DNA of 64,000 bases from Desulfatiglans anilini DSM 4660 (GCF_000422285.1 NZ_AULM01000003.1:248001-312000); one strand, 5' to 3'; counted from the first letter of the stretch, positions 32,579 through 53,647 are shown. The notes: a model not told the origin generated them from the letters alone. Program-made: numbers and translations.

Positions 32579-32836
32579 ATGATCGTTCGACGCAAAGGCG
32601 GCCTGACCGAGTTCATCCCGTCGCCGCAGGAGAAGCGCGACGGCCTGATCCGCGACCACGCCCTGGGCCTACTGGAGAATCTGCACCAGCGCCTGGCGCG
32701 GCTGGAACGGGCGTCAAAGCTGCCGACCGACGAAGCGGAGGCCTTCACGGCGCTGCTGGCGCGGATGCGGGCCGACGAGTCGCGCAACCTCGAGCTGCAC
32801 GCCAGCCTGATCACCGGCGAAACTGCTTCCGGCTGA
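32579..32836 (+). CDS. Small helical phage protein
   Basis: An 85-residue mostly helical protein starting at ATG 32579 after AAGGAGG, 12 nt after the DUF4815 gene. It has several K/R/E-rich helices and R-L-A-R-L-E-R. It is the last gene of the tail operon and is followed by a hairpin. The role is unknown; the position suggests a fibre-associated small protein or chaperone. Confidence 0.55.
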   Translation: MIVRRKGGLTEFIPSPQEKRDGLIRDHALGLLENLHQRLARLERASKLPTDEAEAFTALLARMRADESRNLELHASLITGETASG

Positions 32837-32860
32837 CCGGCTCGCTGCCACCGCCAACCC

Positions 32861-32898
32861 AGAAACCCCGGATACGGCCTGCCCGTTCCGGGGTTTCT
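32861..32898 (+). terminator. Hairpin at the end of the tail operon
   Basis: An 11-bp perfect stem, AGAAACCCCGG (32861-32871) with CCGGGGTTTCT (32888-32898), and a 16-nt loop. No U-run follows, so a Rho-independent terminator is possible but incomplete. It lies 24 nt after the last tail gene. Confidence 0.55.
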
Positions 32899-33085
32899 GC
32901 CGCCTGTGCCCCGCCCAATCCGGCCAAGTTCGCAAGTGATTGAAAATAAACGTGTTAAATGTCGGCTTCGGCTGTTCTTCTACTTGATTTGTGTCCGGAA
33001 AGAAGCATTCATTCATGGTGTAAGCAGAGGCTGAAAAGCCTTGCCAGACAACGACTTAGAAGCGCCATGAACGACGGAGGCACGC
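32899..33085. other. Intergenic region between tail operon and amidoligase module
   Basis: 187 bp with an A/T-rich patch (about 32940-32965) but no convincing -10/-35 pair. A good ribosome site (GGAGG, 33075-33079) precedes the amidoligase. No sequence resembling the phage element is present. The module probably has its own promoter here. Confidence 0.4.
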
Positions 33086-34048
33086 ATGAACCTGAAAGAG
33101 ATCCACTACGGGATCGAGATCGAGACCGTAAAACGCACCCGGGAACAGATCGCCTGGGCCATCCACTCGGTGGTGGGCGGCACGGTCCGCCATGTCGGTA
33201 TCCCCAGCAGCTATGACCCCTGGGAAGTCGAGGACCTGCGCGGCCGGGTCTGGAAGGTGGTGGGGGACGCCTCCCTGACCAGCGTCCCGGCCCATCTGCG
33301 GGCCGAGGTGGTCAGCCCGGTGCTCGGCTACGACGACATCCCGCAACTACAGGAGGCGGTCCGGGCCATCCGCCGCGCTGGGGGCAAGATCAACAGCCAG
33401 TGCGGCATCCACATCCATATCGATGCCGCGCCCTTCGATGGCAGGCACCTGGGTAACCTGGCCAAGATCATCTACAAGCAGGAGCCGCTGATCCTCCACG
33501 CCCTCGGCATCAGCCGCGACCGCCTCAACCGCTACACACGGCCAGTCAGCGACGAGCTGATCCAACGCATCGAACAGCATCGCCCCCGCACCAAGGATCA
33601 GCTCAACCGCATCTGGTACGGCTACCACAACCGCCAGCCCCAGCACTACGACAGCAGCCGCTACCACGGGGTCAACCTGCACAACGTCTGGTACCGGGGA
33701 ACGGTGGAGTTCCGCTGGTTCGAGGCGACCCTCCACGCGGGGCGAATCAAGGCCTACCTGCAATTCTGCCTCGCCGTCGCCGCCAAGGCGCTCAACGGCC
33801 GGGCCGCTTCCAGCCGCAAGCGAGACTTCGATCCCCAGAGCGCCAAGTACGACTTCCGGGTCTTCCTGCTCCACCTCGGCCTGATCGGCGATGAGTTCAA
33901 GACCGCCCGCAAGCATCTGATGGCCAACATGCCCGGCGACGCCGCCTTCAAGAACGGACGGCCCAAACCGGAGGACGTCCTTCCGGATGAAACCGAAACC
34001 ACCACTCTCACCAACGAGGCCGGGCAAGTTCCCGGCCTCACTGTTTAA
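33086..34048 (+). CDS. Phage amidoligase (ATP-dependent amide ligase of the COOH-NH2 ligase family)
   Basis: A 320-residue protein with the amidoligase pattern (PF12224-like): G-I-E-I-E-T near the N-terminus (residues 9-14), H-I-H-I-D (about 109-113) and E-F-R-W-F-E (about 210-215). These supply the conserved Glu/His residues of a glutamine-synthetase-type active site. Family members are predicted to form amide bonds between a carboxylate and an amine using ATP. Aravind's group described phage and bacterial amidoligases co-encoded with glutamine amidotransferase and gamma-glutamylcyclotransferase genes; both partners are here within 2 kb. The product is unknown. Confidence 0.82.
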
Positions 34049-34059
34049 GGAGGTGCCCC

Positions 34060-34581
34060 ATGAAGATTCTGATCCGCTCCACCACGCTGGACGGCGAACC
34101 GATCCCCGGCAGCGGGGAAACCATCCAGGCCGCCGACTGCCTCGAAGTTGTCGAGCTGATGCGCGGCCAGACGCCGTTCACCGCCAACCGAGCGCCCCGC
34201 GACTACATGACCGAGGTGCTTTCCGGCATCGAAGGCGGACCGACCCAGCCTCTGCCGGAGGACACCGCCGCTGCGGCCGCCGAGTTTCTCACTCGTCTGG
34301 CTCGGCACGGACTGATCGAGTTTCTGCCCGACGACAAGGCCAGCGATCCCTGGCCGGAACGCTTCCTCGAAGCCCTGGAAACGGTGCGGCTCTCCGGGCG
34401 CACCAACATGCTCGACCACCCGGAGGTGACCCGGCTGACCGCCGAGATGGGCTACCCGGAGGTGGCCGAGTGGCTGGCGGGTCACCGGCGCGAATACTCG
34501 ACCTTCGTCCTCGAAGGGACGAGACCGCTCGGTAAGAACTTCGGCGGCAAGGAGGACCCGGCTCCATGTGCGGACAAGTAG
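34060..34581 (+). CDS. Small partner protein of amidoligase module (DUF5049-like C-terminus)
   Basis: A 173-residue protein starting at ATG 34060, with AAGGAGG upstream. The C-terminal half contains R-L-S-G-R-T-N-M-L-D-H-P-E-V-T near 110-125 and E-M-G-Y-P-E-V, which resembles DUF5049, a small phage domain. It overlaps the glutamine amidotransferase gene by 16 nt. As the only non-enzyme of the module it is a candidate substrate or targeting protein; the link is inferred from gene order only. Confidence 0.55.
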   Translation: MKILIRSTTLDGEPIPGSGETIQAADCLEVVELMRGQTPFTANRAPRDYMTEVLSGIEGGPTQPLPEDTAAAAAEFLTRLARHGLIEFLPDDKASDPWPERFLEALETVRLSGRTNMLDHPEVTRLTAEMGYPEVAEWLAGHRREYSTFVLEGTRPLGKNFGGKEDPAPCADK

Positions 34582-35363
34582 GCATCATCTTCGGCCGCAA
34601 GCGCAGGCGGCCCGACGAGCGGGATTACCTGCGCGAGGTCTTCATCCGCATGCTGCTGCACAGCGAGGAGCGCGGCCCGCATGCCTCCGGTCTGGCCTGG
34701 CTCAAGACCGACGGCAGCTACCGTATCTTCAAGCGGCCGATGCGGGCGCACGAACTGGTCTACGAGAAGCCGTTCCAGGAGCTGCTCGGGCAGGTCGACA
34801 ACGAGACCACCATCCTCATGGGCCACACCCGCTGGCGCACCCGGGGCAACGAGTTCAACAGCCGCAACAACCATCCCATCCGGGCCGGGATCGTCATCGG
34901 CACCCACAACGGCACCATCTACAACGCCGATTATCTGTTCCGCCGTCTCGGGCTGCCGCGCTACGCCGAGGTGGACAGCGAGCTGATCTTCCGCCTGGCC
35001 GACCGTTTCGCGCCCGAAGGCCCCATCGACCAGGAGGGGCTAAAGAAGGCGCTTGCCCTCTGTCGCGGCCAGATGAGCGCCGTGCTGGCCTCGCGACTCG
35101 ACCCCGGCACCATCACCGTGCTCAAGGGCAACAAGCCGCTCTGCCTGCGCATCCACCGCCAGCACCGGGTGGTGCTCTATGCCTCGGACGACGCCTTTAT
35201 CGACTTTGCCGTGGACAACGAGAAGGTTTGGCGCGAGCTGGAGGTGCCGCCCATGACCATGCTCACCATCCGCCACGCGGATGTGCGGGCCATCGAGAAC
35301 AGCGAATTCCGCTTCATACCCCAGGAGCGCAAAGGGACACTGCCCGAAGGAGCGAATGCATGA
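34566..35363 (+). CDS. Class II (Ntn) glutamine amidotransferase
   Basis: A 265-residue protein starting at ATG 34566 directly followed by Cys (M-C-G), the N-terminal nucleophile exposed after Met removal. Family features: R-G-P-H-A-S-G-L near 38-45, G-H-T-R-W-R-T near 80-86, and H-N-G-T-I-Y-N near 113-119, corresponding to the GATase class II glutaminase core. It lacks a synthase partner domain, so it would supply ammonia, or act on a glutamine amide, for a separate enzyme such as the amidoligase. The next gene overlaps by 4 nt. Confidence 0.88.
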   Translation: MCGQVGIIFGRKRRRPDERDYLREVFIRMLLHSEERGPHASGLAWLKTDGSYRIFKRPMRAHELVYEKPFQELLGQVDNETTILMGHTRWRTRGNEFNSRNNHPIRAGIVIGTHNGTIYNADYLFRRLGLPRYAEVDSELIFRLADRFAPEGPIDQEGLKKALALCRGQMSAVLASRLDPGTITVLKGNKPLCLRIHRQHRVVLYASDDAFIDFAVDNEKVWRELEVPPMTMLTIRHADVRAIENSEFRFIPQERKGTLPEGANA

Positions 35364-35884
35364 ACATTGGAGACACCGCGAAGCTGAACACAAACCCGGA
35401 AGACACTCCCGAGATCTTCCTCCGGCTCTTCGTCTACGGCACCCTGAAACGGGGCTACTGGAACCATCAACGCTTCTGCGCCCAGGCCCGCAGCATCGAA
35501 CCGGCCGTGGTTTGGGGCAGGCTCTACCACCTCCACGCCGGTTTCCCGGCCCTCGAAGTGCCGGAAGGTCTCATCCTGGCCCGGGGCAGCGTTGATCCAC
35601 TGGCCGACGCCCGCAGACAGCACGAGATCGGCACGCCGCGCTTCGGACGCCCGACCGGCGACTGGGATCTGATCCATGGGGAACTGGTGACCTTCACCGA
35701 CCCGCAACGCGACCTGCCGCCCATCGACCGGCTGGAAGGATTTTGGCCCGGTGGGCACAGCATGTACCAGCGGGTGATGGTGGCGGTGCTGTGCGGGCGT
35801 ACCTCGATTCCTGCCTGGACCTACTGGATGCCCCGTGTTGAAAACGGCACCCGTCTTGACTCCGGCGTCTGGCATCGAGCGTGA
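35360..35884 (+). CDS. Gamma-glutamylcyclotransferase (GGCT/AIG2-like)
   Basis: A 174-residue protein starting at ATG 35360. The signature F-V-Y-G-T-L-K-R-G (about residues 24-32) is the GGCT/AIG2 phosphate/substrate-binding loop. D-R-L-E-G-F (about 136-141) carries a likely acid residue, and M-Y-Q-R (about 148) follows. GGCT enzymes release 5-oxoproline from gamma-glutamyl amines, so it could remove or process a gamma-glutamyl tag made by the amidoligase. It ends the phage-side block; a promoter for the restriction operon follows. Confidence 0.85.
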   Translation: MNIGDTAKLNTNPEDTPEIFLRLFVYGTLKRGYWNHQRFCAQARSIEPAVVWGRLYHLHAGFPALEVPEGLILARGSVDPLADARRQHEIGTPRFGRPTGDWDLIHGELVTFTDPQRDLPPIDRLEGFWPGGHSMYQRVMVAVLCGRTSIPAWTYWMPRVENGTRLDSGVWHRA

Positions 35885-35918: not shown

Positions 35919-35948
35919 TTGACATAGCACATAGCGTCTTTGTATATT
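35919..35948 (+). promoter_or_regulatory. Sigma-70 promoter of the type I restriction operon
   Basis: TTGACA (35919-35924) and TATATT (35943-35948) separated by 18 nt, the best promoter match in the window. It lies 97 nt upstream of the HTH gene. A dyad GGGAGAG (35967-35973)/CTCTCCC (35985-35991) in the leader could be an attenuator or binding site. Confidence 0.78.
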
Positions 35949-36044: not shown

Positions 36045-36260
36045 ATGAACGAGATGGAAGACCGCTGGTTATCAATAACCGAGATTTGCAAGTACCTCGG
36101 GGTCAGCAACGACACCGTTTACAAGTGGATCGACAAGCATGGTATGCCCGCCCACCGCATGGGTCGTCTTTGGAAGTTCAAGAAGGACGAAGTGGACGCG
36201 TGGGTCAAGGCTGGCGGCGCGGCCGAGCCTGCGGAAACCGACAAGAAGCGCAAGGAGTAA
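36045..36260 (+). CDS. Excisionase/MerR-type HTH protein of the restriction operon
   Basis: A 71-residue DNA-binding protein. L-S-I-T-E-I-C-K-Y-L-G-V-S-N-D-T-V-Y-K-W-I near residues 9-29 is the HTH_17/excisionase winged-helix pattern, with R-M-G-R-L-W-K-F-K-K as the wing. A lysine-rich tail follows. Similar small HTH proteins often precede hsdM in type I operons, likely controlling expression. It is the first gene after the promoter. Confidence 0.85.
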   Translation: MNEMEDRWLSITEICKYLGVSNDTVYKWIDKHGMPAHRMGRLWKFKKDEVDAWVKAGGAAEPAETDKKRKE

Positions 36261-36269: not shown

Positions 36270-38402
36270 ATGAACCATGTGATCCACAACAGCATCGTGA
36301 ATTTTATCTGGGGTATCGCCGACGACGTGTTGCGCGATGTCTACGTGCGCGGCAAATACCGCGACGTGATCCTGCCCATGACGGTCATCCGCCGCCTCGA
36401 CGCGCTTTTGGAGCCGAGCAAGGAAAAAGTCCTCGGCATGAAGAAGCAGCTCGACGGGGCCGGGATTGCCAACCAGCACGCCGCGCTCTGCCAGGCTGCA
36501 GGCGAGGCCTTTTACAACGTCTCGCCCTTTACCCTGCGTGACCTGAAGAACCGCGCCAAGCAACAACAGCTCAAGGCCGATTTCGAAGCTTATCTGGACG
36601 GCTTTTCACCCAACGTCCAGGAGATTCTCGACAAGTTCAAGTTTCGCAACCAGATCCCCACGTTGATCGAGGCCGACATCCTCGGCCACCTGATCGAGAA
36701 GTTTCTCGACGGCCGCGTCAATCTGAGCCCCAAGCCGGTGCAGGACGTGGACGGAAACGAACTTCTCCCGGCGCTCGACAACCACTCCATGGGCACCATC
36801 TTCGAGGAGCTGATCCGCCGCTTCAACGAGGAGAACAACGAAGAGGCCGGAGAGCACTTCACGCCCCGCGACGTGGTCAAGCTCATGGCCGATCTGATCT
36901 TCCTGCCGGTGGCCGACGATATCGAGTCGGGCACCTACCTTGTCTATGACGGAGCCTGCGGCACCGGCGGAATGCTGACAGTGGCTGAAGAGCGCTTGGC
37001 CGAATTGGCCGAAAGCCACGGCAAGGACGTCTCCATTCACCTGTTCGGCCAGGAGGTGCAGCCGGAAACCTACGCCATCTCCAAGGCCGACCTGCTGCTC
37101 AAAGGCGAAGGGGCCGAGGCAGAGAATATGAAGTACGGCTCCACGCTCTCCAGCGATGCCTTCCCGTCGCAGGAATTCGATTTCATGCTCTCCAATCCGC
37201 CCTATGGCAAGAGCTGGAAGACCGACCTGGAGCGCCTGGGCGGCAAGGGCGATATCAAGGACCCGCGCTTTGTCACCCAGCACGGTGGCGACCCGGAATA
37301 CAAGATGATCACCCGCTCCTCGGACGGGCAGCTCATGTTCCTGGTCAATAAGCTCTCCAAGATGAAGCACACTACCCGCCTCGGTAGCCGCATCGCCGAA
37401 GTCCACAACGGCTCGTCGCTCTTCACCGGCGACGCCGGTCAGGGCGAGAGCAATGTCCGCCGCTGGATCATCGAGAACGACTGGCTGGAGGCCATCATCG
37501 CCCTGCCGGAGAACACGTTCTACAACACCGGCATCGCCACCTACATCTGGGTGCTGACCAACCGCAAGTCTGATACGCGCCGGGACAAGGTTCAGCTCAT
37601 CGACGCCACCGAATGGTACGTGCCGCTGCGGCGCAACCTCGGCAAGAAGAACTGCGAGTTCTCCGAGGAACACATCCGCGCCATCTGCGACCTGGTGGTC
37701 AATCCGGTCGAGACCGGGAAATCCAAGATCTTCCCCAACGAGGCCTTCGGCTACTGGAAGGTGACGGTGGATCGTCCGCTGCGTCTTGCCGTTGATCTGA
37801 GCCCGGCCCGGCTGGGTCGGTTCGAGCGGGCCTGCGCCAAGGCCAAGGAAGAGCCGCTGGCCAACCTGGCCCGCCGCGTGGCCAAGACGCTTGGAGCCGG
37901 TCCGCACCTGGATTTCAACGCCTTCGTGGATGCCTGCGACACCGATGCCGACAAGCACGGTGTCAAGCTCACCGCCAAGCGCAAGAAGCTGCTGCAGAGC
38001 GACCTCTGCGACACCAGCGAGGACGCCGCGCCGGTGCTGAAGAAGGTCCACAAGCCGGGCAAGACCACGCCCGACCCCATCCACGGCCTATTCGAGGCCG
38101 AGGTGGTCGGCAAACACTGCGTGGTTGAATACGAGCCGGATACCGCCCTGCGCGACACCGAACAGGTGCCGCTGCTGGAAGAAGGCGGCATCGAGGCGTT
38201 CTTCCAGCGCGAGGTGCTGCCCTACACCCCGGACGCCTGGATCGACCCGGGCAAGACACTGGTGGGCTACGAGATCTCCTTCACCCGCCATTTCTACCGG
38301 CCCGCGCCCATGCGCACCCTGGATGAAATCAAGGCCGATATCTACGCCCTGGAGCAGGAGACCGAAGGCCTTCTGGAACAGATTGTCGGGGAGGCTGAGT
38401 GA
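36270..38402 (+). CDS. hsdM: Type I restriction-modification DNA methyltransferase HsdM
   Basis: A 710-residue N6-adenine methyltransferase that modifies sites chosen by HsdS. The N-terminal helical domain is followed by the AdoMet motif D-G-A-C-G-T-G-G-M-L (about residues 228-237) and the catalytic N-P-P-Y (about 309-312). T-P-R-D-V-V near 198 is the usual pre-motif. It is about 200 residues longer than classical HsdM; the extra C-terminal region contains a charged segment. It overlaps hsdS by 1 nt. Confidence 0.93.
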   Translation: MNHVIHNSIVNFIWGIADDVLRDVYVRGKYRDVILPMTVIRRLDALLEPSKEKVLGMKKQLDGAGIANQHAALCQAAGEAFYNVSPFTLRDLKNRAKQQQLKADFEAYLDGFSPNVQEILDKFKFRNQIPTLIEADILGHLIEKFLDGRVNLSPKPVQDVDGNELLPALDNHSMGTIFEELIRRFNEENNEEAGEHFTPRDVVKLMADLIFLPVADDIESGTYLVYDGACGTGGMLTVAEERLAELAESHGKDVSIHLFGQEVQPETYAISKADLLLKGEGAEAENMKYGSTLSSDAFPSQEFDFMLSNPPYGKSWKTDLERLGGKGDIKDPRFVTQHGGDPEYKMITRSSDGQLMFLVNKLSKMKHTTRLGSRIAEVHNGSSLFTGDAGQGESNVRRWIIENDWLEAIIALPENTFYNTGIATYIWVLTNRKSDTRRDKVQLIDATEWYVPLRRNLGKKNCEFSEEHIRAICDLVVNPVETGKSKIFPNEAFGYWKVTVDRPLRLAVDLSPARLGRFERACAKAKEEPLANLARRVAKTLGAGPHLDFNAFVDACDTDADKHGVKLTAKRKKLLQSDLCDTSEDAAPVLKKVHKPGKTTPDPIHGLFEAEVVGKHCVVEYEPDTALRDTEQVPLLEEGGIEAFFQREVLPYTPDAWIDPGKTLVGYEISFTRHFYRPAPMRTLDEIKADIYALEQETEGLLEQIVGEAE

Positions 38403-39823
38403 TGAAGCTGGCCCCTTATCCAGAATACAAAGACGCGGGAGTGAGCTGGGTCGGGAGCATTCCAGCACATTGGCCTGAGATGCGGGCAAAGTATTACTTC
38501 AAAGAGATTGATGATCGCTCCCAAACAGGCGATGAAGAAATGCTCTCGGTGTCTCACATCACGGGAGTGACTCCCCGCAGCCAGAAGAACGTGACCATGT
38601 TCAAGGCCGAGTCGAATGTCGGTCAGAAACGTTGCCAACCCGGCGATCTGATCATCAATACGATGTGGGCCTGGATGTCTGCATTGGGCGTCTCGAACCA
38701 TGCTGGAATTGTGAGTCCTGCCTATGGTGTTTACCGACCAAGAAGCAACCAGGATTACGACTACTACTATCTCGACAGCCTGTTGCGGATTGGAGGATAT
38801 CGCTCGGAATACATTTGCCGGTCAACGGGCATTCGCTCTTCCCGGCTCAGGCTCTATCCCGATAAATTTCTGAGCATGCCGGTGGTCTGCCCTCCTCAGG
38901 AAGAGCAGCAAACCATCGCACGATTCCTGAAGGCACAAGACCGCTTGTTCCGAAAATTTATCCGCAACAAACGGCGGTTCATCGAACTGCTCAAGGAGCA
39001 GAAGCAGAACGTCATCAACCAGGCCGTGACCCGGGGGCTCAATCCCAACGTCAAACTCAAGCCCAGCGGCGTGGAATGGATCGGAGATATTCCGGAGCAT
39101 TGGGATGCCAGACGGCTCCGCACGCTGGCGGCGGTCAGGGCAAGTGGCGTCGACAAGAACACGAACGAGGACGAAGTCCCGGTCCTGCTCTGCAACTACG
39201 TGGACGTTTACAAGAACGACCGCATCACCGCCGCTATCGATTTCATGAAGGCCACGGCCACGCCGGAAGAGATTCGCGCTTTTGAGCTGAAAGCGGGCGA
39301 CGTAATCATCACCAAGGACTCCGAAAGTTGGGACGACATCGCCATTCCCACTTTCGTGCCCGAGGCTCTTCCCGGCATCGTTTGCGCCTATCACTTGGCC
39401 TTGATCCGACCGTTCTCAGGTGAAATCGAAGGCGAGTTTCTGTTCAGGGCATTCTCATCCGACCCAGTGGCAGACCAGTTCCGGATTGCCGCTACCGGCG
39501 TGACCCGCTTTGGCTTGGCGCAAGGTGCAATCAAGGGGGCGTTCTTCCCGCTCCCGCCGTTGGAGGAACAGCGGGCGATTATTGCTCACATCAATGAGAA
39601 GTGCGCCGAGATAAGCCAGGCGATTTCAAGGGCCGAGCGTGAGATCGAATTGATGCGCGAATACCGCACCCGACTGATTTCCGATGTGGTCACCGGTCAG
39701 GTGGATGTGCGCGGCATCGAGGTGCCAGAGATTGCCGACGAAGAGCTGCTGTCGCTGGATGAGGACACCGCCGATGCCGATGACGTGATTGATGACGAGG
39801 GGGACATGGATGAAACCGACTGA
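38402..39823 (+). CDS. hsdS: Type I restriction specificity subunit HsdS
   Basis: A 473-residue protein starting at ATG 38402 (TGATG overlap with hsdM). Two target-recognition domains (about residues 1-170 and 215-400) are separated by conserved helices. G-V-S-W-V-G-S-I-P-A-H-W near the N-terminus and G-V-E-W-I-G-D-I-P-E-H-W near 225 are the repeated starts of the two halves. The tail is acidic, D/E-rich. It defines a bipartite DNA site not readable here. It overlaps the nuclease gene by 14 nt. Confidence 0.93.
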   Translation: MKLAPYPEYKDAGVSWVGSIPAHWPEMRAKYYFKEIDDRSQTGDEEMLSVSHITGVTPRSQKNVTMFKAESNVGQKRCQPGDLIINTMWAWMSALGVSNHAGIVSPAYGVYRPRSNQDYDYYYLDSLLRIGGYRSEYICRSTGIRSSRLRLYPDKFLSMPVVCPPQEEQQTIARFLKAQDRLFRKFIRNKRRFIELLKEQKQNVINQAVTRGLNPNVKLKPSGVEWIGDIPEHWDARRLRTLAAVRASGVDKNTNEDEVPVLLCNYVDVYKNDRITAAIDFMKATATPEEIRAFELKAGDVIITKDSESWDDIAIPTFVPEALPGIVCAYHLALIRPFSGEIEGEFLFRAFSSDPVADQFRIAATGVTRFGLAQGAIKGAFFPLPPLEEQRAIIAHINEKCAEISQAISRAEREIELMREYRTRLISDVVTGQVDVRGIEVPEIADEELLSLDEDTADADDVIDDEGDMDETD

Positions 39824-40853
39824 CAAAACCCCAAAAAACAGCCTCGGCAAACCGCAGGACTACCCGGGCCTGCTGACCGAGATCAAGGAGCGCATCCGCT
39901 CCGCCCAGTATGAAGCCCTCAAGGCGGTCAACAAGGAGCTGGTCGGCCTGTACTGGGATATCGGCCGGATGATCGTGGAGCGGCAGGATGTTGAAGGCTG
40001 GGGCAAGGCGGTGGTGGAACAGCTCGCCGCCGATCTGCGGACGGAGTTTCCCGGCGTGGGCGGTTTCTCGTCCTCCAACCTCTGGCGGATGAAAGCCTTT
40101 TTCGAGGCGTACACCGGCCTGGAAAAACTCGCACCACTGGTGCGAGAAATCGGCTGGAGCCACAACCTGGCCATCCTGGAGCGCTGCAAGGACCCGCTGG
40201 AGCGGGAATTCTATCTGCGCATGACCCGCAAGTTCGGCTGGTCCAAGAATGTCCTCATTCACCAGATCGACAACCAGAGCTATGAAAAATCCCTGCTGGG
40301 CCAGACCAACTTCGACCAGGCGCTGACGCCGGAACTTCGCGCCCAGGCCAAGCTGGCGGTGAAGGACGAATACACCTTCGATTTTCTGGAACTGGGCGAG
40401 GAACACAGCGAGCGGGAGCTGGAGCGGGCGCTCATCGCCCGGATCGAGGATTTCCTCCGGGCCATGGGCGGCATGTTCGCCTTCATGGGCAGCCAATACC
40501 GGCTGGAGGTGGACGGCAAAGAGTTTTTCATCGACCTCTTGTTGTTTCACCGCCGTCTGCGCTGCCTTGTCGCCATTGAATTGAAAGTCGGCGAGTTCCT
40601 GCCGGAGTTCGTCGGCAAGATGCAGTTTTATCTGGCGGCTCTGGACCGGCAGGTCCGCCAGGAGGACGAGAACCCCTCCATCGGCATCATCCTGTGCAAG
40701 GAGAAGAGCCGCACGATTGTGGAATACGCCCTGCACGACGCCCGCAAGCCCATCGGCGTGGCCACCTATGAAATCACCAAGACCCTGCCCAAGGCGCTGA
40801 AAGGCCAACTGCCGTCGCCGAAGGACATCGCCCATTTGCTGGAGGATCTATGA
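39810..40853 (+). CDS. DUF1016 (YhcG-like) PDDEXK nuclease
   Basis: A 347-residue protein; ATG 39810 is chosen for its GAGGGGG. The N-terminal helical DUF1016_N domain includes V-G-L-Y-W-D-I-G (about residue 43) and L-R-x-E-F-P-G-V. The PDDEXK core is F-F-I-D-L-L-L-F-H near 236 and C-L-V-A-I-E-L-K-V-G near 248. YhcG proteins occur in defense islands and are proposed nucleases; insertion between hsdS and hsdR suggests an accessory of this restriction system. The ATG overlaps the HsdR start on the same ATGA pattern. Confidence 0.9.
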   Translation: MKPTDKTPKNSLGKPQDYPGLLTEIKERIRSAQYEALKAVNKELVGLYWDIGRMIVERQDVEGWGKAVVEQLAADLRTEFPGVGGFSSSNLWRMKAFFEAYTGLEKLAPLVREIGWSHNLAILERCKDPLEREFYLRMTRKFGWSKNVLIHQIDNQSYEKSLLGQTNFDQALTPELRAQAKLAVKDEYTFDFLELGEEHSERELERALIARIEDFLRAMGGMFAFMGSQYRLEVDGKEFFIDLLLFHRRLRCLVAIELKVGEFLPEFVGKMQFYLAALDRQVRQEDENPSIGIILCKEKSRTIVEYALHDARKPIGVATYEITKTLPKALKGQLPSPKDIAHLLEDL

Positions 40854-43800
40854 AACCGACCGACACCAGCGAAAAGGGCCTGGAGTCCATCATCGTCGCG
40901 TCCCTCGTGGAGGAGGCCGGATACGTTCAGGGCGACCCGCAGGACTACGACCGGGAACACGCTGTCGACCGGGCCAAGTTGCTGCAATTCCTCTCCGCCA
41001 CCCAGCCCGACACCTATGAGGCTCTTGGCATCGACGAGGAAGGCGGCTCTTCCAATCCTCGGCGCACCCAATTCCTGCACCGCCTGCAGGGCGAGATCGC
41101 CAAGCGCGGCGTGGTAGACGTGCTGCGCGGCGGCATCAAGCACGGCCCGGCCCATGTGGACCTTTTCTACGGCACGCCGACGCCAGGCAATGTGAAGGCG
41201 GCCGAGCGGTTCGCGGCCAACATCTTCAGCGTCACCCGCCAGTTACGCTACAGCCGCAATGAGACTGCGCTCTCCCTCGACATGGCCGTGTTCATCAACG
41301 GCCTGCCCATCGCCACCTTCGAACTCAAGAACAAACTCACCAAGCAGACGGTGCTTGATGCCGTGCAGCAGTACCAGCGCGACCGCGACCCGAAGGAGCT
41401 GCTGTTCCAGTTCGGCCGCTGCGTCGTCCATTTTGCCGTGGACGATCACGAGGTGCGTTTCTGCACCCACCTCAAGGGCAAGGGCTCGTGGTTTCTGCCG
41501 TTCGACAAAGGCTACAACGACGGCGCTGGCAATCCGCCCAACCCGGCCGGGCTCGCCACCGACTACCTGTGGAAGGAGACCCTCTCCAAAGAGGGCCTGA
41601 CCGATATCCTGGAAAACTACGCCCAGGTGGTGGAGGAAAAGGACGAGAAGACCGGCAAAAAGAGGTACAAGCAAATCTTCCCTCGCTACCACCAGTTAAA
41701 GGTGGTGCGCATGCTGCTGGCCAATGCCGCCGAGAGCGGCATCGGCAGGCGCTACCTGATCCAGCACTCGGCGGGCAGCGGCAAGAGCAACTCTATCGCC
41801 TGGCTGGCGCACCAGCTTGTGGGGCTGGAACACGAGAGCAAGGCGTTGTTCGATTCGGTCATCGTGGTCACCGACCGACGGGTGCTCGACAAACAGATCC
41901 GCGACACCATCAAGCAGTTCGCCCAGGTTTCCGCCACCGTCGGCCATGCCGAGCATTCCGGCGACCTGCGCCGCTTCCTCAAGGCCGGTAAGAAAATCAT
42001 CATCACCACGGTGCAGAAGTTCCCGTTCATCCTCGATGAGATCGGCGATGAACACCGCAAGAGCAAATTCGCCATCATCATCGACGAGGCCCATTCCAGC
42101 CAGGGCGGCAAAACCACCGCCGCCATGAACATGGCCGTTGCGGAAAAGCCGGGTGAATACAAGGCGGAATGGGATGAACTGGATACCGAGGACAAGATCA
42201 ACAAGATCATGGAAGGCCGGAAGATGGTGACCAACGCCAGCTACTTCGCCTTCACCGCGACCCCAAAGAACAAGACCCTGGAGATCTTCGGCGAGCCGGA
42301 CCCGCAGCCGGACGGCACCGTGAAGCACCACCCGTTCCACAGCTACACCATGAAGCAGGCCATCCAGGAGGGCTTCATCCTCGATGTGCTTAAGAACTAC
42401 ACCCCGGTGGAGAGCTACTACCGCCTGGCCAAGACAGTGGAGGACGATCCGCTCTTCGACGCCAACAAGGCCCAGAAAAAGCTGCGCCGCTATGTGGAGT
42501 CCCATGAGCACGCCATCCGCGAGAAGGCGGAGATCATGGTGGACCACTTCCACGCCCAGGTGATCGGCCACCGCAAGATCGGCGGCCATGCCCGGGCCAT
42601 GGTCATTACCAACGGCATCGAGCGGGCCATCCAGTATTTCCACGCCTTCAGGGACTACCTCAAGGAGTGCAAGAGCCCTTACGAGCCCATCGTGGCTTTT
42701 TCCGGGGAGCACGACTTTTCACATAAAGATTGGGGCGGCAAGAAAGTGACCGAAGCGACGCTGAACGGCTTCCCCAGCAGCCAGATCCCGGACAAGGTGC
42801 AACAGGACCCGTACCGCTTCCTGATCGTCGCCGACAAGTTCCAGACCGGCTACGACGAACCGCTGCTGCACACCATGTACGTGGACAAGGCGCTCTCCGG
42901 CATCAAGGCGGTGCAGACCCTCTCGCGACTCAATCGCGCCCATCCGCAAAAGCACGACACCTTTGTGCTCGATTTCTACAACGACTCGGAGACCATCCAG
43001 AAGTCGTTCGAGCCCTATTACCGCACCACCATCCTCAGTGACGAGACCGACCCCAATAAGCTGCACGACCTGAAGTCGGATCTGGACGGCTACCAGGTCT
43101 ATTCGCAGGCGCAAATCGACGATCTGGTGGGACTCTACCTGAACGGCGCGGACCGCGACAAGCTCGACCCGATCCTGGACGCATGCGTGGCCACCTACAA
43201 TGCCGATCTCGACGAAGACGGACAGGTGGACTTCAAGGGCAAGGCCAAGGCCGTCGTGCGCACCTACGGTTTTCTGTCCTCGATTCTGGCGTACTCGAAT
43301 GCCGACTGGGAAAAGCTGTCGATCTTTCTGAATTTCCTGATCCCGAAACTCCCCGCGCCCAAGGAAGAGGATCTGTCCCGGGGCATCCTGGAGGCCATCG
43401 ACATGGACAGCTACCGTGTCGAGGTGAAAACCAGCCTGAAGATAGGCCTTCCGGATCAGGATGCCGAAATCGGACCGGTGCCGACCAGCGGTGGTGGCCG
43501 CAAACCGGAACCGGAGCTGGACCAACTGAGCAACATCATCAAGGCGTTCAACGACCAGTTCGGCAACATCGATTGGAAGGACGGCGACAAGATCCGCAAG
43601 GTCATTGCCGAGGAGATCCCAGCCAAGGTAGCAGCGGACGCGGCCTACCAGAACGCCATGAAGAACAACGATAAGAAGACCGCCCGGATCGAGCACGACG
43701 CCGCGCTGCAACGCGTCATGATCGACCTCTTGTCCGACCACACCGAGCTGTTCAAGCAGTTCAGCGACAACCCGTCGTTCAAGAAATGGCTGGGCGACAC

Positions 43801-43867
43801 CATCTTCGGCGTGACCTATCAGCAACAGGCCGAACAATCCGCAACGGGGGCGAGCCATGGACGTTAG
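40850..43867 (+). CDS. hsdR: Type I restriction endonuclease HsdR
   Basis: A 1005-residue motor/nuclease subunit. The PDDEXK core lies near residues 140-160 (V-F-I-N-G-L-P-I-A-T-F-E-L-K-N). Walker A H-S-A-G-S-G-K-S is near 306, DEAH (A-I-I-I-D-E-A-H-S-S) near 410, and S-x-x-T-A-T-P follows (F-A-F-T-A-T-P-K-N). Helicase motifs V-VI are near 662-690 (F-Q-T-G-Y-D-E-P). It cuts DNA lacking methylation at a distance after translocation. It starts with ATGAAACCGAC, as the preceding gene does, which may reflect a duplicated start region. It overlaps the next gene by 11 nt. Confidence 0.95.
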   Translation: MKPTDTSEKGLESIIVASLVEEAGYVQGDPQDYDREHAVDRAKLLQFLSATQPDTYEALGIDEEGGSSNPRRTQFLHRLQGEIAKRGVVDVLRGGIKHGPAHVDLFYGTPTPGNVKAAERFAANIFSVTRQLRYSRNETALSLDMAVFINGLPIATFELKNKLTKQTVLDAVQQYQRDRDPKELLFQFGRCVVHFAVDDHEVRFCTHLKGKGSWFLPFDKGYNDGAGNPPNPAGLATDYLWKETLSKEGLTDILENYAQVVEEKDEKTGKKRYKQIFPRYHQLKVVRMLLANAAESGIGRRYLIQHSAGSGKSNSIAWLAHQLVGLEHESKALFDSVIVVTDRRVLDKQIRDTIKQFAQVSATVGHAEHSGDLRRFLKAGKKIIITTVQKFPFILDEIGDEHRKSKFAIIIDEAHSSQGGKTTAAMNMAVAEKPGEYKAEWDELDTEDKINKIMEGRKMVTNASYFAFTATPKNKTLEIFGEPDPQPDGTVKHHPFHSYTMKQAIQEGFILDVLKNYTPVESYYRLAKTVEDDPLFDANKAQKKLRRYVESHEHAIREKAEIMVDHFHAQVIGHRKIGGHARAMVITNGIERAIQYFHAFRDYLKECKSPYEPIVAFSGEHDFSHKDWGGKKVTEATLNGFPSSQIPDKVQQDPYRFLIVADKFQTGYDEPLLHTMYVDKALSGIKAVQTLSRLNRAHPQKHDTFVLDFYNDSETIQKSFEPYYRTTILSDETDPNKLHDLKSDLDGYQVYSQAQIDDLVGLYLNGADRDKLDPILDACVATYNADLDEDGQVDFKGKAKAVVRTYGFLSSILAYSNADWEKLSIFLNFLIPKLPAPKEEDLSRGILEAIDMDSYRVEVKTSLKIGLPDQDAEIGPVPTSGGGRKPEPELDQLSNIIKAFNDQFGNIDWKDGDKIRKVIAEEIPAKVAADAAYQNAMKNNDKKTARIEHDAALQRVMIDLLSDHTELFKQFSDNPSFKKWLGDTIFGVTYQQQAEQSATGASHGR

Positions 43868-44900
43868 AACGGCCGCCATTCAGGTTTTGCAGCAGGCCGG
43901 AACGGAACTGCACGCCAAGGATATCGCCGAGCAGATCATGGCTGCCGGTCTCTGGCAATCCGGAGGGAAAACCCCAGACGCCACTGTCAGCGCCCGGCTC
44001 TACTCCGACATCAAGAACAACGGAGACAAGTCACCCTTTGTAAAGGTCGGCCCTCAGACCTTCGCGCTTCGGAATTCCGCTGAAATACCGAGCAGCACTG
44101 GGCCGGTTCCTGCGGCCGTCGAGGAAGCCCCAAAACCTCATCCTACCAACGCGGGATTTTCCTTCACCGATTGTGCTCAGAAGGTGCTTGAGGAGTTCGG
44201 CGGGAAGAAGCCGATGCACTACAAGGAGATCACCGAGAAGGCCCTGGCGAAAGGATGGTTGGTGACAGGTGGCAAAACGCCCGAAGCCACCATGTACGCC
44301 CAGGTGATCACCGAGATCAAACGCCAGCAGAAACGCGGTGAGCGGCCCCGCTTCGTCCAGCACGGCCGTGGCTATGTGGGCCTGAGCCAATGGATGGGGC
44401 GTGGACTCGCATTCCAAATCGAGCAGCACAACCACCAGGTCCGCAAGGTCCTGCGCGAGCGCTTGCTGGCCATGAAGCCCGGTGAGTTCGAGGAGCTCAT
44501 CTCTCAGTTACTGGCGGAGATGGGTTTCGAGATGGTCGAGGTAACTAAACTCAGCGGCGACGGCGGCATCGATGTCAGGGGCACCCTGGTGGTTGGTGAC
44601 GTTGTCCGCATCAAGATGGCCGTCCAGGTCAAGAAATGGAAGCTCAAGAACAACATCCAAGCCCCGGTCGTGCAGCAGGTGCGCGGCAGCCTGGGGGCGC
44701 ACGAGCAAGGCCTGATCATCACCACCAGCGACTTCAGCCCCGGAGCCGTCAAGGAAGCTGCCCAGTCCGACAAGACACCCATCGCCCTGATGAATGGGGA
44801 ACAGCTTGTGATGCTCCTGATGGAACACGGCATCGGCGTCCATCGTTCGACGCCTGATTTGTTTGAAATTGATGAAGAATTCGGACCGGTGATGAAATGA
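43857..44900 (+). CDS. HARE-HTH + Mrr-like restriction endonuclease
   Basis: A 347-residue protein with two HARE-HTH (ASXL-type) winged-helix domains (about residues 3-70 and 103-175, each with K-T-P-D/E-A-T) and a C-terminal Mrr-type PDDEXK nuclease (about 200-345). Catalytic D-G-G-I-D-V is near 235 and Q-V-K-K-W-K near 258. HARE-HTH domains are proposed to read modified DNA, and Mrr enzymes cut modified DNA. The gene overlaps HsdR, so it is likely part of the same operon: a restriction system plus an enzyme that may target modified phage DNA. Confidence 0.85.
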   Translation: MDVRTAAIQVLQQAGTELHAKDIAEQIMAAGLWQSGGKTPDATVSARLYSDIKNNGDKSPFVKVGPQTFALRNSAEIPSSTGPVPAAVEEAPKPHPTNAGFSFTDCAQKVLEEFGGKKPMHYKEITEKALAKGWLVTGGKTPEATMYAQVITEIKRQQKRGERPRFVQHGRGYVGLSQWMGRGLAFQIEQHNHQVRKVLRERLLAMKPGEFEELISQLLAEMGFEMVEVTKLSGDGGIDVRGTLVVGDVVRIKMAVQVKKWKLKNNIQAPVVQQVRGSLGAHEQGLIITTSDFSPGAVKEAAQSDKTPIALMNGEQLVMLLMEHGIGVHRSTPDLFEIDEEFGPVMK

Positions 44901-44969
44901 CGGCGCGGATAGTTCGATTCTCCAAGACCGCAGAATGCATGCGGGACTGTCGATTGAGCGGGGTGAGAA

Positions 44970-45509
44970 ATGAATAGAGTTGATTTTTTGCTGGATGCCG
45001 ACGAACTGGTTCCAGTCATTGGGACACTGCAGGACGCTTTAACAAGACGCCCCAATCCTGAAGGTGAGCCGCATTTCGATCTGCAGACTGCGCTTGATAG
45101 TTGCGACGAATATTTTCAGAGCATTCGGGAGCTTACGGAAGCCACCGGAAGGCTCTCTACTCATGATCTGCTTCAGGCAGCAAACGGTATGTCATCGGGT
45201 TACCGGTGCTTTTGGGAGCGGCCATTCCCCCAGGGCCTGGAAATGGGACAGCCTCTGTTTTCGGCCGTTCTCGAACGGCCCATGCGCGAACTGCTGCGGA
45301 CGCTTCAGTCTCTCACAGAGGCTGAAAGCGGAGATTCTCTGGGTGAACCGCTGATTACTCTTGATGCAGAGGAGGAACTGAATTGTTTCAACTCGTGGCT
45401 TGATGGCCTTGCAGCCCATCAGAGAATTGGTTTGCGGCCTTCACAGGGGTATGGATTAGGGTCCTTGGCAGCCTCCTTCTTGCTGGGATGGTGGTTTGGG
45501 CGGGATTGA
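44970..45509 (+). CDS. Unknown protein with C-terminal hydrophobic segment
   Basis: A 179-residue protein. The N-terminal 150 residues are soluble and acidic. The last 17 (Y-G-L-G-S-L-A-A-S-F-L-L-G-W-W-F-G) form a short hydrophobic tail that could anchor it in the membrane. There is no recognisable motif. It lies between the Mrr-like gene (69-nt gap) and the DUF3553 gene (117-nt gap), so it is probably transcribed separately or in a defense-island unit. The start ATG 44970 has only a weak upstream GGGTGAG. Confidence 0.5.
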   Translation: MNRVDFLLDADELVPVIGTLQDALTRRPNPEGEPHFDLQTALDSCDEYFQSIRELTEATGRLSTHDLLQAANGMSSGYRCFWERPFPQGLEMGQPLFSAVLERPMRELLRTLQSLTEAESGDSLGEPLITLDAEEELNCFNSWLDGLAAHQRIGLRPSQGYGLGSLAASFLLGWWFGRD

Positions 45510-45626
45510 TACGTGTTCGGCAAGCGCCATTCTCTTTATGGTGTGTCATATTCTGACGCAGACATTGATTATCTTCATGGCGAACCGAGCGGCATGCTGC
45601 GATAAAGGAAAAAGGAGGATTGAACG

Positions 45627-46493
45627 ATGATTGCAACCGGGGATAAGGTGCGACACCCCAAGATGCCCGATTGGGGTATAGGGAAGGTGTTGGAGGTCAC
45701 ATCGGATGGAAAGGCCAGGATATTTTTCATCCATGCCGGGGAAAAGACCATTCTGTTGAGCCATGTCGATTTTGAAAAGATCGAAGGTGAAGAAGCTGCA
45801 CACCCAATACTCGACAATCCATCTTTTTTCGAACGCGCCACGGTCAAAGGGCACAGAAGTCTGCCCGACGCCCGGTTGGATTTTTTGAAGCTTTTCCCTG
45901 ATGGGTTTGAGGACGCCGGTTATCTCAACGAGGAACGTAATTACAAAGTCGCTGCCAGGGAGCTTCTGCTGGAATTGCTCAGCGAGCAGGCTTTCAGGGA
46001 ACTTCTCGGAAGCGGAAATTTCGATGAAATCGTGCGACGGGCTCTCCAGGTAGCCAATAAGACCAACCTGATTTTCCCCAACGAAAAGATGGGCCTCAAG
46101 GATGGCCTGAAAACCCCCGAACACATCCAGCTTTTTGCCGAGCGCTTATTCGACCTTCTTTACGGCAATGGCGAATTCAGGAAGCGATTTGAAACTTTCG
46201 CGGAATGCCTGGAAGAGATTGAGGCGGCCAAATGGACCACCATGACCTACTTTACATTTCTCGCATTCCCCGAAAAACACATGTTTCTCAAACCTGAAGT
46301 CACCAAGCATGCCGCTGCACTCACTAAGGCCGAGCTGAACTACAAGTCCGACCTGAATTGGGTGACTTATTCCTGCCTGCTCGATTTCGCCAGGTATCTC
46401 AAAGATGAGCTGGTCGCCATGGAAATGAACCCGCGTGACATGATTGATGTACAGTCATTCATGTGGTGCATTACGCCCGGGAAGTACGACTGA
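45627..46493 (+). CDS. DUF3553-domain protein (defense-cluster component, ZacA-like?)
   Basis: A 288-residue protein starting at ATG 45627, with a strong AAAGGAGG. The N-terminal ~50 residues (G-D-K-V-R-H-P, W-G-I-G-K-V-L-E-V) match DUF3553, a small SH3-like fold also found in RecQ/UvrD-like helicases. The rest is helical. It is the first of four tightly packed genes with a DUF6361 protein, PLD-family nuclease and helicase. Its position suggests the first subunit of an Azaca-like defense system, but that label is from memory. Confidence 0.6.
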   Translation: MIATGDKVRHPKMPDWGIGKVLEVTSDGKARIFFIHAGEKTILLSHVDFEKIEGEEAAHPILDNPSFFERATVKGHRSLPDARLDFLKLFPDGFEDAGYLNEERNYKVAARELLLELLSEQAFRELLGSGNFDEIVRRALQVANKTNLIFPNEKMGLKDGLKTPEHIQLFAERLFDLLYGNGEFRKRFETFAECLEEIEAAKWTTMTYFTFLAFPEKHMFLKPEVTKHAAALTKAELNYKSDLNWVTYSCLLDFARYLKDELVAMEMNPRDMIDVQSFMWCITPGKYD

Positions 46494-46494
46494 T

Positions 46495-47724
46495 ATGCCT
46501 TCCGTCCTTGCATGGATTGACCATGACTCGAAAGCGAGGGAACGCACGCTTCGCATCCTTTCCCTTTTCCAGGAAAAGGAAAGTCGTGACGAGCTTGGGC
46601 TCGGTTCCGTTCGGGACAGCTTTGCCGATCAGTTGTTCCCAGGAACGAGTACGATCCAGACGCGCCTCCGCTACATGCTTTTCGTGCCATGGATTTACCA
46701 TTCGCTGGAAGAGAAGCGACTACCTGCAGAGAGTTTTTCGATCCAGGCTGACAAGCTGGAAAGAGACCTGGTTCAGCCATTGATGGATTCAGATGATCAG
46801 GCTGGCGTCTTTGGTAAGACCGCAGGAAAGAGGCTCAAACGTTTGCCCAGCTCCGTCTACTGGGCCGGTCTCGGTGTCTGGGGAATACGCATTACGCCAT
46901 TCTCGCAGGACGAATATCACAGGCGCATCGAAGAAACTTACCGTCGCCGGAATGCCCTGAAGGCTCTTGAGAAAGACGCAAAGGCACGAGGAGACGATGT
47001 CGACGTTGATCAGCGGATGGCCGCTCTCAGTTGGCATCCTCGATTGCCAGCACCTCCGGAAGATTTTCCGGGGGCGGTGAACTTCGCTTTAACCAGGGAA
47101 GAGTCTGAATTTGTTCGGGATCGCATCCAGGTCGCTTGCCCCAACAGTCTCCTCTCTTTCTTGGCACTGCACTGCGAACCCGCCGACACCCAAGCCCCAT
47201 GGGAACATCCGGACTACAGCAGCTATTCGGAACAGCATAAAGAACTTCTGACCCACGCACGGCTGTTCTCGGAGGTGATGCATGGAGCGGCGCTCTCGTA
47301 CAACGTTCAGCTCGCCAGGCTTCGAAACCATGACGACCTTGTCGCCGAGCATCAGGCAAGTTTCGACGAATGGACCGCAAATCTTCCCCTGGAGGAGATT
47401 CGCGCCTGGTCTGTGAGCCGCCTCTGGGAGTTGACGATAGATCATGGCCACACCATCACCCCGCAAACGAGATCCTTCGTTCAGCAATGGATCGACCATA
47501 CCCGGAAGTCCCCCAGCGACCTCCTTTCTTACGCCGAGGCGCTCACCCTGATCAAAAGAAGAGAAATGAAACTCAAGGGCACGCGTTCCCGATTCAGGAA
47601 CCAGAGGGCGCTCGAGCAGTGGGGCGGGTACTCCGGCGTCGGAAGACTCGTTTATCGCTGGCCGAATGTGAAGGTGCTTTTGAACGACCTGTACCAGGGG
47701 ATGAACCGGGAGGAGCAATGCTGA
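46495..47724 (+). CDS. DUF6361-family protein
   Basis: A 409-residue protein starting at ATG 46495, 1 nt after the previous stop. G-L-G-S-V-R-D-S-F-A-D-Q-L-F-P-G-T-S-T near residues 36-54, followed by R-L-R-Y-M-L-F-V-P-W, is the DUF6361 signature. The protein is mainly helical with no obvious catalytic motif. It overlaps the next gene by 7 nt, so all four genes form one operon. Its fixed association with PLD and helicase genes implies a structural or recognition role. Confidence 0.8.
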   Translation: MPSVLAWIDHDSKARERTLRILSLFQEKESRDELGLGSVRDSFADQLFPGTSTIQTRLRYMLFVPWIYHSLEEKRLPAESFSIQADKLERDLVQPLMDSDDQAGVFGKTAGKRLKRLPSSVYWAGLGVWGIRITPFSQDEYHRRIEETYRRRNALKALEKDAKARGDDVDVDQRMAALSWHPRLPAPPEDFPGAVNFALTREESEFVRDRIQVACPNSLLSFLALHCEPADTQAPWEHPDYSSYSEQHKELLTHARLFSEVMHGAALSYNVQLARLRNHDDLVAEHQASFDEWTANLPLEEIRAWSVSRLWELTIDHGHTITPQTRSFVQQWIDHTRKSPSDLLSYAEALTLIKRREMKLKGTRSRFRNQRALEQWGGYSGVGRLVYRWPNVKVLLNDLYQGMNREEQC

Positions 47725-52764: not shown

Positions 52765-52777
52765 TACGAGGGACCGC

Positions 52778-53644: not shown

Positions 53645-53647
53645 TCA

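What the first reader, a model, noticed from the sequence alone, without database searches (positions are those of the whole stretch)
33086..35884. Complete amidoligase / small protein / glutamine amidotransferase / GGCT module in a prophage
Four genes in a row: an amidoligase with G-I-E-I-E-T, H-I-H-I-D and E-F-R-W-F-E, a 173-residue DUF5049-like protein, a class II glutaminase with N-terminal Cys, and a gamma-glutamylcyclotransferase with the FVYGTLKRG loop. The last three overlap. Established: comparative genomics (Aravind group) predicted that such gene sets make amide-linked peptide or small-molecule tags. Inference: the amidoligase attaches an amine or glutamine to a carboxylate, the GATase manages glutamine amide chemistry, and the cyclotransferase trims gamma-glutamyl groups. 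The small partner or a host protein may be the target. I know of no assigned function.
Basis: partly seen in the sequence, partly recalled or inferred. Interest (0 to 1): 0.78.

Follow-up and report, generated by a model that had tools for sequence, protein, structure and literature searches.

The report
Phage amide-bond ligase and eraser cassette
A prophage carries four adjacent genes that look like a working set for making and breaking glutamate-type amide bonds; such sets were already predicted in other phages and their target is still unknown, but here the set is fixed in a phage found almost unchanged in bacteria of different phyla, and across gut phages the bond-breaking enzyme is kept only where the bond-making enzyme still looks catalytically active.

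Summary
Window 33086-35884 holds four intact genes: a GS/GCL-like amidoligase (PF12224, 8e-71), a 173-aa small protein ending in DUF5049, a class II glutaminase with Cys2, and a GGACT cyclotransferase. Catalytic-type residues are conserved, and the predicted ligase structure matches YbdK, glutamate-cysteine ligase, glutamine synthetase and Dop/PafA. The order is nearly fixed in this contractile-tailed prophage lineage: among 11 viral loci chosen only by the upstream tail gene, with at least 5.4 kb downstream, nine have all four genes and two have none. The ligase evolves very slowly (dN/dS 0.04).

The recurring core is ligase plus a gamma-glutamyl-cleaving enzyme. In 47 gut Heliusvirales records with a ligase homologue, cyclotransferase occurs in 32 of 33 with an active-type ligase and 0 of 14 with only a degenerate paralogue. 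The glutaminase is optional. DUF5049 is dispensable, and the C-terminal CADK is an overlap artefact, not a tag. Best reading: a cassette that writes and erases gamma-glutamyl-type amides, most likely on an envelope peptide or amine. That idea is published as a prediction (Iyer 2009; phage 'peptidoglycan modification cassette'). New variant of a known kind; target unproven.

The parts
33086..34048 (+). GS/GCL-like carboxylate-amine ligase (Amidoligase_2), 320 aa; putative metal/ATP-site residues E11, E13, D61, E74, H109, H111, E208, R210
   Evidence: PF12224 8.3e-71; those residues invariant in 22 aligned proteins; AlphaFold2 pLDDT 88.6; VIA Z 13.5 YbdK-type, 13.3 plant GCL, 10-11 GS and Dop/PafA
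34060..34581 (+). Small protein, 173 aa: conserved N-terminal domain of about 95 aa (unknown) plus a dispensable C-terminal DUF5049 helical domain (105-153)
   Evidence: PF16468 6.6e-13; alignment with the 113-aa lineage lacking DUF5049; model pLDDT 79.5; no usable PDB match
34566..35363 (+). Stand-alone class II glutamine amidotransferase (Ntn glutaminase), 265 aa; Cys2, R36-G37, HTRW 87-90, N115-G116, D137
   Evidence: PF13522 1.1e-21; phmmer to GlmS glutaminase 1xff 5e-9; residue conservation
35360..35884 (+). Gamma-glutamylamine cyclotransferase family (GGACT/AIG2-like), 174 aa; YGTL loop 26-29 and putative catalytic Glu126; the 3' end is variable between copies
   Evidence: PF06094 6.3e-20; conservation
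32860..32899 (.). Perfect 13-bp inverted repeat with 14-nt loop between orf85 and the ligase, directly before insertion hotspot A (alignments break at 32900/32928 in several relatives)
   Evidence: blastn breakpoints in L008, L030, L032; insert with mer-like genes there in L030
29018..32566 (+). DUF4815 tail-region protein, the upstream phage gene used as an independent bait
   Evidence: PF16075 1.7e-100; loci chosen with it
32579..32836 (+). orf85, small phage gene between DUF4815 and hotspot A, no family match
35919..35948 (+). Sigma-70-like promoter match (11 of 12) reading into hotspot B, just after the module
   Evidence: 0.5 expected by shuffling; a consensus match only
36045..36260 (+). 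HTH/excisionase-like gene (mad1-like) at the start of the variable defence cargo (hotspot B)
   Evidence: TIGR01764 2.2e-22, MADS1 78.7 bits just under its cut-off of 80; mad1
36270..63361 (+). Variable cargo: type I RM with a PDC-S02 gene, Mrr/HARE-HTH gene, ZacB/ZacC, a second type I RM set, AAA ATPase

Best explanation
The four genes are a phage cassette that makes and removes gamma-glutamyl-type amide bonds. Step 1 (fold and residues shown, reaction inferred): the amidoligase uses ATP to activate a carboxyl group, most likely the gamma-carboxyl of glutamate or of a glutamyl residue, and joins it to an amine. Step 2 (inferred): the stand-alone class II glutaminase either feeds it ammonia from glutamine or hydrolyses a gamma-glutamyl amide as EgtC does. 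Step 3 (inferred from family): the GGACT protein releases the gamma-glutamyl group as 5-oxoproline, so the modification is reversible or a by-product is cleared. The small protein is probably an accessory subunit. The most likely target is a peptide or amine of the host envelope, changed during infection or lysogeny so that the cell is harder for other phages to infect. The target is the weakest step.
For: The predicted ligase fold matches enzymes that work on a glutamate gamma-carboxyl: YbdK, GCL, GshAB, GS, Dop/PafA. Catalytic-type residues are invariant and dN/dS is 0.036. En bloc inheritance: of 23 loci chosen by DUF4815 alone, 19 of the 21 with useful downstream sequence have the ligase; of 11 with at least 5.4 kb downstream, nine have all four genes and two have none. 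Cyclotransferase tracks catalysis: in Heliusvirales 32 of 33 records with an active-type ligase have GGACT, usually about 0.1 kb downstream, against 0 of 14 with only a degenerate paralogue; the paralogues read in full lost ExE, HxH and ExR. PV036437 lost the active ligase and most of GGACT in one deletion relative to PV036446, whose flanks are 98% and 95% identical. One phage without GGACT has class II GATase plus Peptidase_C26, the family of gamma-glutamyl hydrolases. Similar cassettes are reported in lytic podoviruses. The block sits between two cargo hotspots, as expected of a moron.
Against: No biochemical or genetic data. The fold does not fix the acyl donor or amine. Amidoligases L058 and L059, outside this phage lineage, have no GGACT nearby, and most non-phage-type ligases in 395 same-phylum genomes have neither partner within about 1.3 kb. 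The glutaminase is missing from several ligase+GGACT phages. Envelope targeting and superinfection exclusion rest on literature predictions only. The exception PV036454 has only a motif-level Ntn-like neighbour without a significant curated match. Related records are not independent, so the Fisher values overstate significance.
Confidence: 0.45

Rival explanations
1. Auxiliary nitrogen or amine metabolism: the enzymes form a gamma-glutamyl cycle on free amino acids or polyamines (as in the Puu pathway or glutathione turnover) to supply nitrogen or adjust polyamines during phage growth, without any surface target.
For: The structural relatives act on gamma-glutamyl bonds; a Planctomycetes phage with the same enzyme set was reported to promote host growth with nitrate or ammonium (PMC10945688); Peptidase_C26, the PuuD family, occurs in a related cassette.
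Against: The ligase is under far stronger constraint than its partners, and a dedicated phage ligase would be odd when hosts have their own GS and GCL; the growth data did not test these genes singly.
Confidence: 0.22
2. Protein modification: the ligase adds glutamate or an amine to a carboxylate of a phage virion or host protein (for counter-defence, takeover or virion maturation) and GGACT/glutaminase trims it, analogous in logic to PafA/Dop.
For: Dop/PafA are among the structural matches; in this lineage the genes lie downstream of tail genes; degenerate paralogues keep the C-terminal KYxFRxFLLxLGxIG region, which suggests a binding role separate from catalysis.
Against: YbdK and GCL match better and GS as well; no tag-like terminus is conserved in the small protein; the same enzymes sit away from structural genes in other phages.
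Confidence: 0.2
3. The genes make a small secreted or signalling metabolite (amide-linked peptide or gamma-glutamyl compound).
For: Iyer et al. 2009 proposed such pathways for amidoligases generally (own knowledge; paper not held); efflux cargo is present elsewhere in the same prophage and next to the module in L031.
Against: No precursor peptide or other biosynthetic gene is conserved with the block; the efflux genes are variable cargo, not part of it.
Confidence: 0.08
4. Passive cargo without benefit to the phage, carried by hitch-hiking between two insertion hotspots.
For: Flanked by hotspots A and B; absent in L095 and L097; decayed in L054 and L056.
Against: Present in 19 of 21 lineage members chosen by another gene and dN/dS as low as 0.036.
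Confidence: 0.05

Closest known systems
Phage amidoligase/GATase/GGCT cassette of phiEco32, LUZ24/tf and RIO-1-like podoviruses ('peptidoglycan modification cassette', PMC5498523; predicted by Iyer et al. 2009)
   Same: GS-like amidoligase, class II glutaminase and GGCT/AIG2-like gene in one phage gene set
   Different: Here four compact genes in a temperate contractile-tailed phage, placed after the tail genes between two cargo sites; no second amidoligase or R2K ATP-grasp detected (the PF14395 and R2K_2 searches had no positive control); an added small DUF5049 protein
YbdK / glutamate-cysteine ligase / glutamine synthetase / Pup ligase PafA and Dop (GS-like carboxylate-amine ligases)
   Same: Same fold by predicted structure (Z 10-13.5) and conserved acidic/His residues
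   Different: Little sequence identity (about 8-17%); no solved structure is detectable by sequence and I know of no established substrate for the Amidoligase_2 family
BtrG / GGACT gamma-glutamylamine cyclotransferases
   Same: YGTL loop and conserved Glu; paired with a ligase as in the butirosin pathway (own knowledge)
   Different: Partner ligase is GS-like, not ATP-grasp; substrate unknown
Ca. Heliusvirales gut-phage amidoligase + GGCT pair
   Same: Ligase followed by a GGACT gene, about 0.1 kb apart
   Different: No class II glutaminase detected in the records tested; a degenerate second ligase is common there; DUF5049 is found beside the degenerate paralogue

Membership tests
GS-like carboxylate-amine ligase (Amidoligase_2, PF12224) | Profile match over the whole domain | tested here: met
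   239 bits against cut-off 22, profile 2-244/245
GS-like carboxylate-amine ligase (Amidoligase_2, PF12224) | GS/GCL fold | tested here: met
   Model pLDDT 88.6; Z 13.5 (235 aligned, rmsd 4.1) to 1tt4 and 13.3 (250 aligned, rmsd 4.0) to 2gwc
GS-like carboxylate-amine ligase (Amidoligase_2, PF12224) | Conserved metal/ATP-site acidic and His residues | tested here: met
   E11, E13, D61, E74, H109, H111, E208, R210 invariant in 22 sequences; their spatial overlay on a solved active site was not done
GS-like carboxylate-amine ligase (Amidoligase_2, PF12224) | ATP-dependent amide bond formation | not testable with these tools
   Needs enzymology
Class II glutamine amidotransferase | N-terminal Cys nucleophile and Arg/Asn-Gly/Asp glutamine-site motifs | tested here: met
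   Cys2, R89, N115-G116, D137 conserved; exceptions are L056 (Cys lost, start in another frame) and L007 (D to E)
Class II glutamine amidotransferase | Glutaminase activity and ammonia channelled to a synthase partner | not testable with these tools
   Stand-alone domain; the partner would have to be the ligase
GGACT / AIG2-like cyclotransferase | YGTL/S loop plus catalytic Glu | tested here: met
   Y26-L29 invariant in 20; E126 in 19 of 20, the exception L027 diverging from about residue 75 on, as if out of frame
GGACT / AIG2-like cyclotransferase | Release of 5-oxoproline from a gamma-glutamylamine | not testable with these tools
   Needs enzymology
DUF5049 (PF16468) | Profile match | tested here: met
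   6.6e-13 at residues 105-153; the domain is absent in the L008/L010/L050 lineage
phiEco32/RIO-1/LUZ24 phage amidoligase cassette | Amidoligase + class II GATase + GGCT in one gene set | tested here: met
phiEco32/RIO-1/LUZ24 phage amidoligase cassette | Second amidoligase and ATP-grasp enzyme | tested here: inconclusive
   Only one PF12224 match in the whole genome; no COOH-NH2_lig, R2K_2 or R2K_3 match in G000, but the first two searches had no positive control; none seen among the ORFs scanned
phiEco32/RIO-1/LUZ24 phage amidoligase cassette | Change of host peptidoglycan, superinfection exclusion | not testable with these tools
   Not found demonstrated for any member in the papers read

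The most novel reading that the evidence does not exclude
Phages carry a reversible gamma-glutamyl writer/eraser system in which the eraser is kept only beside a catalytically competent writer, while degenerate writer paralogues persist in phages that lost the eraser; a promiscuous ssrA-associated phage has spread one version, almost unchanged, among bacterial phyla, which implies a target (an envelope peptide or common amine) conserved across phyla.
Probability: 0.3. Interest if true: 0.75.

Novelty: new variant of a known kind. Interest (0 to 1): 0.46.

Why it matters
Phage amidoligase cassettes have been described since 2009, but in the papers read here none has an established function. This study narrows the unit to test: a ligase plus a gamma-glutamyl-cleaving enzyme, with the glutaminase optional and DUF5049 dispensable. 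It also supplies natural controls: lineage members without the block, degenerate paralogues, and a pair of phages with closely similar flanks in which writer and eraser were lost together. The window's version is maintained in hosts of different phyla, so its target should be something those hosts share.

Tried and rejected
Peptide tag in the small protein: rejected as unsupported, because CADK is the overlap frame of ATGTGCGGACAAG and lineages with a 1-base overlap end differently. DUF5049 as essential partner: rejected (absent in L008/L010/L050; present in Heliusvirales W04/W05 without an active-type ligase). First taken as ligase-negative, W04/W05 proved to hold degenerate ligase paralogues. 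A first GGACT profile wrongly included a neighbouring ORF and was rebuilt. PDB fold of the small protein: no usable match (Foldseek E at least 0.87, best VIA Z 3.1); this does not show a new fold, and the N-terminal domain was not searched alone. PDB sequence search for the ligase, small protein and GGACT: only chance-level hits. RNA families in 28000-40000: none. Promoter directly before the ligase: none found by the simple scan. DUF5049 in papers: none. Iyer 2009 and the Marvin phage paper could not be read. A right-hand att repeat of the ssrA end was not found in the window or L068.

Full report
WHAT IS THERE. The four genes are real and intact: Amidoligase_2 33086-34048, a 173-aa protein 34060-34581, a class II glutaminase 34566-35363 and a GGACT-family cyclotransferase 35360-35884, the last three overlapping. 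They lie downstream of a contractile-tail gene run (sheath, gp19 tube, CIS tube, baseplate J, Tail_P2_I, DUF4815). The prophage reaches upstream of the window to terminase, portal and an integrase of the phrog_95 family beside a tmRNA gene.

ENZYMES. The ligase model (pLDDT 88.6) matches YbdK, plant GCL, GshAB, E. coli GCL, glutamine synthetase and Dop/PafA. E11, E13, D61, E74, H109, H111, E208 and R210 are invariant in 22 relatives down to 39% identity. From established knowledge, GS, GCL and Pup ligase all activate a glutamate gamma-carboxyl; extending that to this enzyme is inference. The glutaminase keeps Cys2, the Arg, Asn-Gly and Asp motifs, and is closest in the PDB to the GlmS glutaminase domain. 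The cyclotransferase keeps YGTL and the conserved Glu. Spatial overlay of the active sites was not done.

SMALL PROTEIN. Only its last third is DUF5049. A related lineage (L008, L010, L050) has a 113-aa version without that domain, so the N-terminal 95 residues are the constant part. CADK at the C-terminus is forced by the overlap with the glutaminase start. I find no basis for calling it a tag. Its predicted fold had no usable match in the PDB search, which does not prove a new fold.

CONSERVATION WITHIN THE LINEAGE. Loci chosen by the ligase show the same order in essentially all sufficiently long members of this phage lineage. To avoid choosing on the answer I also chose IMG/VR loci by DUF4815 alone: 23 loci, two of them without useful sequence downstream; 19 of the other 21 have the ligase. 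Of the 11 with at least 5.4 kb downstream, nine have all four genes and two (L095, L097) have none, carrying type I RM genes there instead. So the block comes and goes as a unit. In L084 and L085 the ligase gene is split by an insert; in L084 this holds a group II intron RNA and its reverse transcriptase. dN/dS against 12 close relatives: ligase 0.036, small protein 0.13, glutaminase 0.13, cyclotransferase 0.30, the last raised by a variable 3' end.

CONSERVATION ACROSS PHAGES. In 17 phage or virus records, 12 of 13 with a PF12224 ligase have GGACT and 0 of 4 without it do; the glutaminase is in 8 of 13 and DUF5049 varies independently. In the Heliusvirales series, 47 records hold a ligase homologue: 32 active-type with GGACT, 1 active-type without, 0 GGACT without an active-type ligase (PV036437 keeps a 30% remnant), 14 with neither (Fisher 4e-11, inflated by relatedness). 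Those 14 carry only a paralogue; the paralogues read in full lack ExE, HxH and ExR but keep the C-terminal region, and two that were scanned belong to the same phrog family. The activity class of most records is inferred from similarity, not read residue by residue. PV036437 lost the active ligase and most of GGACT in one deletion relative to PV036446. The two records without GGACT have other candidate gamma-glutamyl enzymes: glutaminase plus Peptidase_C26 in ON857932, and an Ntn-like ORF recognised by motif only in PV036454. Counter-examples: L058 and L059 ligases without GGACT, and most non-phage-type ligases in 395 same-phylum genomes.

MECHANISM. I commit to a reversible gamma-glutamyl-amide cassette: ligase writes, GGACT erases or clears, glutaminase supplies ammonia or hydrolyses. 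What is shown is fold, residues, linkage and constraint. What is inferred is the reaction, the gamma-carboxyl and the direction. What is guessed is the target; envelope modification against other phages is the published prediction and I give it the edge, not more.

KNOWN OR NEW. The enzyme trio in phages is known from RIO-1, phiEco32 and LUZ24-like podoviruses; ligase and glutaminase are reported in OM43 phages; ligase plus GGCT was annotated in Clostridium prophages. New here, as far as these tools show, are the compact four-gene form, its en bloc fixation in a cross-phylum temperate phage, and the tie between eraser and catalytic competence. Hence: new variant of a known kind.

THE CARRIER. 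The region from about 25 to 35.8 kb is about 95% identical at DNA level, over the stretch held for each locus, in isolates of Desulfobulbus, Desulfofustis and Desulfosarcina, Dichelobacter nodosus VPI 2340 and Ectothiorhodospira, and in MAGs assigned to Synergistaceae and Opitutaceae (binning not verified). In D. nodosus the segment is an 8-kb remnant in an AT-rich contig, bounded by a copy of the ssrA 3' end and next to a BrxC gene. PMC2593044 reports that the virulence-related locus vrl of that species integrates into ssrA, and its authors raised the possibility that it is a prophage; whether this contig is the vrl was not tested.

Noticed in passing
window 25085-35832; L003, L022, L024, L029, L030, L031, L038, L039, L051, L021: The phage region is about 95% identical at DNA level in isolates of Desulfobacterota and Gammaproteobacteria and in MAGs of other phyla: very recent spread across phyla, or an unusually broad host range.
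   Followed up: partly
L125 (G405:C10) 5174-17270; L069 5122-6181: Dichelobacter nodosus VPI 2340 holds an 8-kb remnant of this phage, bounded by a copy of the ssrA 3' end and next to a BrxC gene; the window's prophage also sits beside ssrA. This may bear on the origin of the vrl locus, which is known to integrate into ssrA.
   Followed up: partly
L071 4086-4787, L072 3146-3796, L018 19109-19873, L020 5560-6288, L019 8907-9770 (-): Degenerate amidoligase paralogues in gut phages that keep only the C-terminal KYxFRxFLLxLGxIG region well; annotated 'virulence-related protein' in some streptococcal phages.
   Followed up: partly
Heliusvirales records: DUF5049 hits fall in 6 of the 14 records with only a degenerate ligase and in none of the 33 with an active-type ligase.
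   Followed up: no
L030 5023-7843 (hotspot A): A mercury-resistance-like set (MerR-, MerT/P- and MerA-like ORFs, named by eye) inserted between orf85 and the ligase in the Ectothiorhodospira copy.
   Followed up: no
window 36045-63361: Defence cargo: two type I RM sets, PDC-S02, an Mrr/HARE-HTH gene, ZacB/ZacC and an AAA ATPase behind a mad1-like HTH gene; the cargo differs between relatives.
   Followed up: partly
window 1988-7046 (-): Outer-membrane efflux protein, MacB-like permease and HlyD-like genes of lower GC inside the prophage; L031 has OEP/HlyD-like ORFs (by eye) just after its GGACT.
   Followed up: no
L084 13884-16131: The amidoligase gene is interrupted by an insert with a group II intron RNA and its reverse transcriptase.
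   Followed up: partly
L027, L028, L031, L044 between glutaminase and GGACT: A minus-strand 125-aa four-helix-bundle (S23/IVP-like, by eye) gene inserted in L031 and L044; L027 and L028 have a gap of the same size at the same point.
   Followed up: no
L069 9254-12134: QatC/QueC-like gene (700 aa) with a preceding gene near the prophage integrase, a possible further defence cargo site.
   Followed up: no
window 35500-35900 and relatives: The 3' end of the GGACT gene diverges abruptly between otherwise 95% identical copies, as if cargo exchange cuts into the gene.
   Followed up: no
L054 8549-9295; L056 7935-9767: Decayed copies: a deletion fuses the small protein to GGACT and removes the glutaminase (Desulfoprunum); truncated ligase and loss of the glutaminase Cys (Achromobacter).
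   Followed up: no
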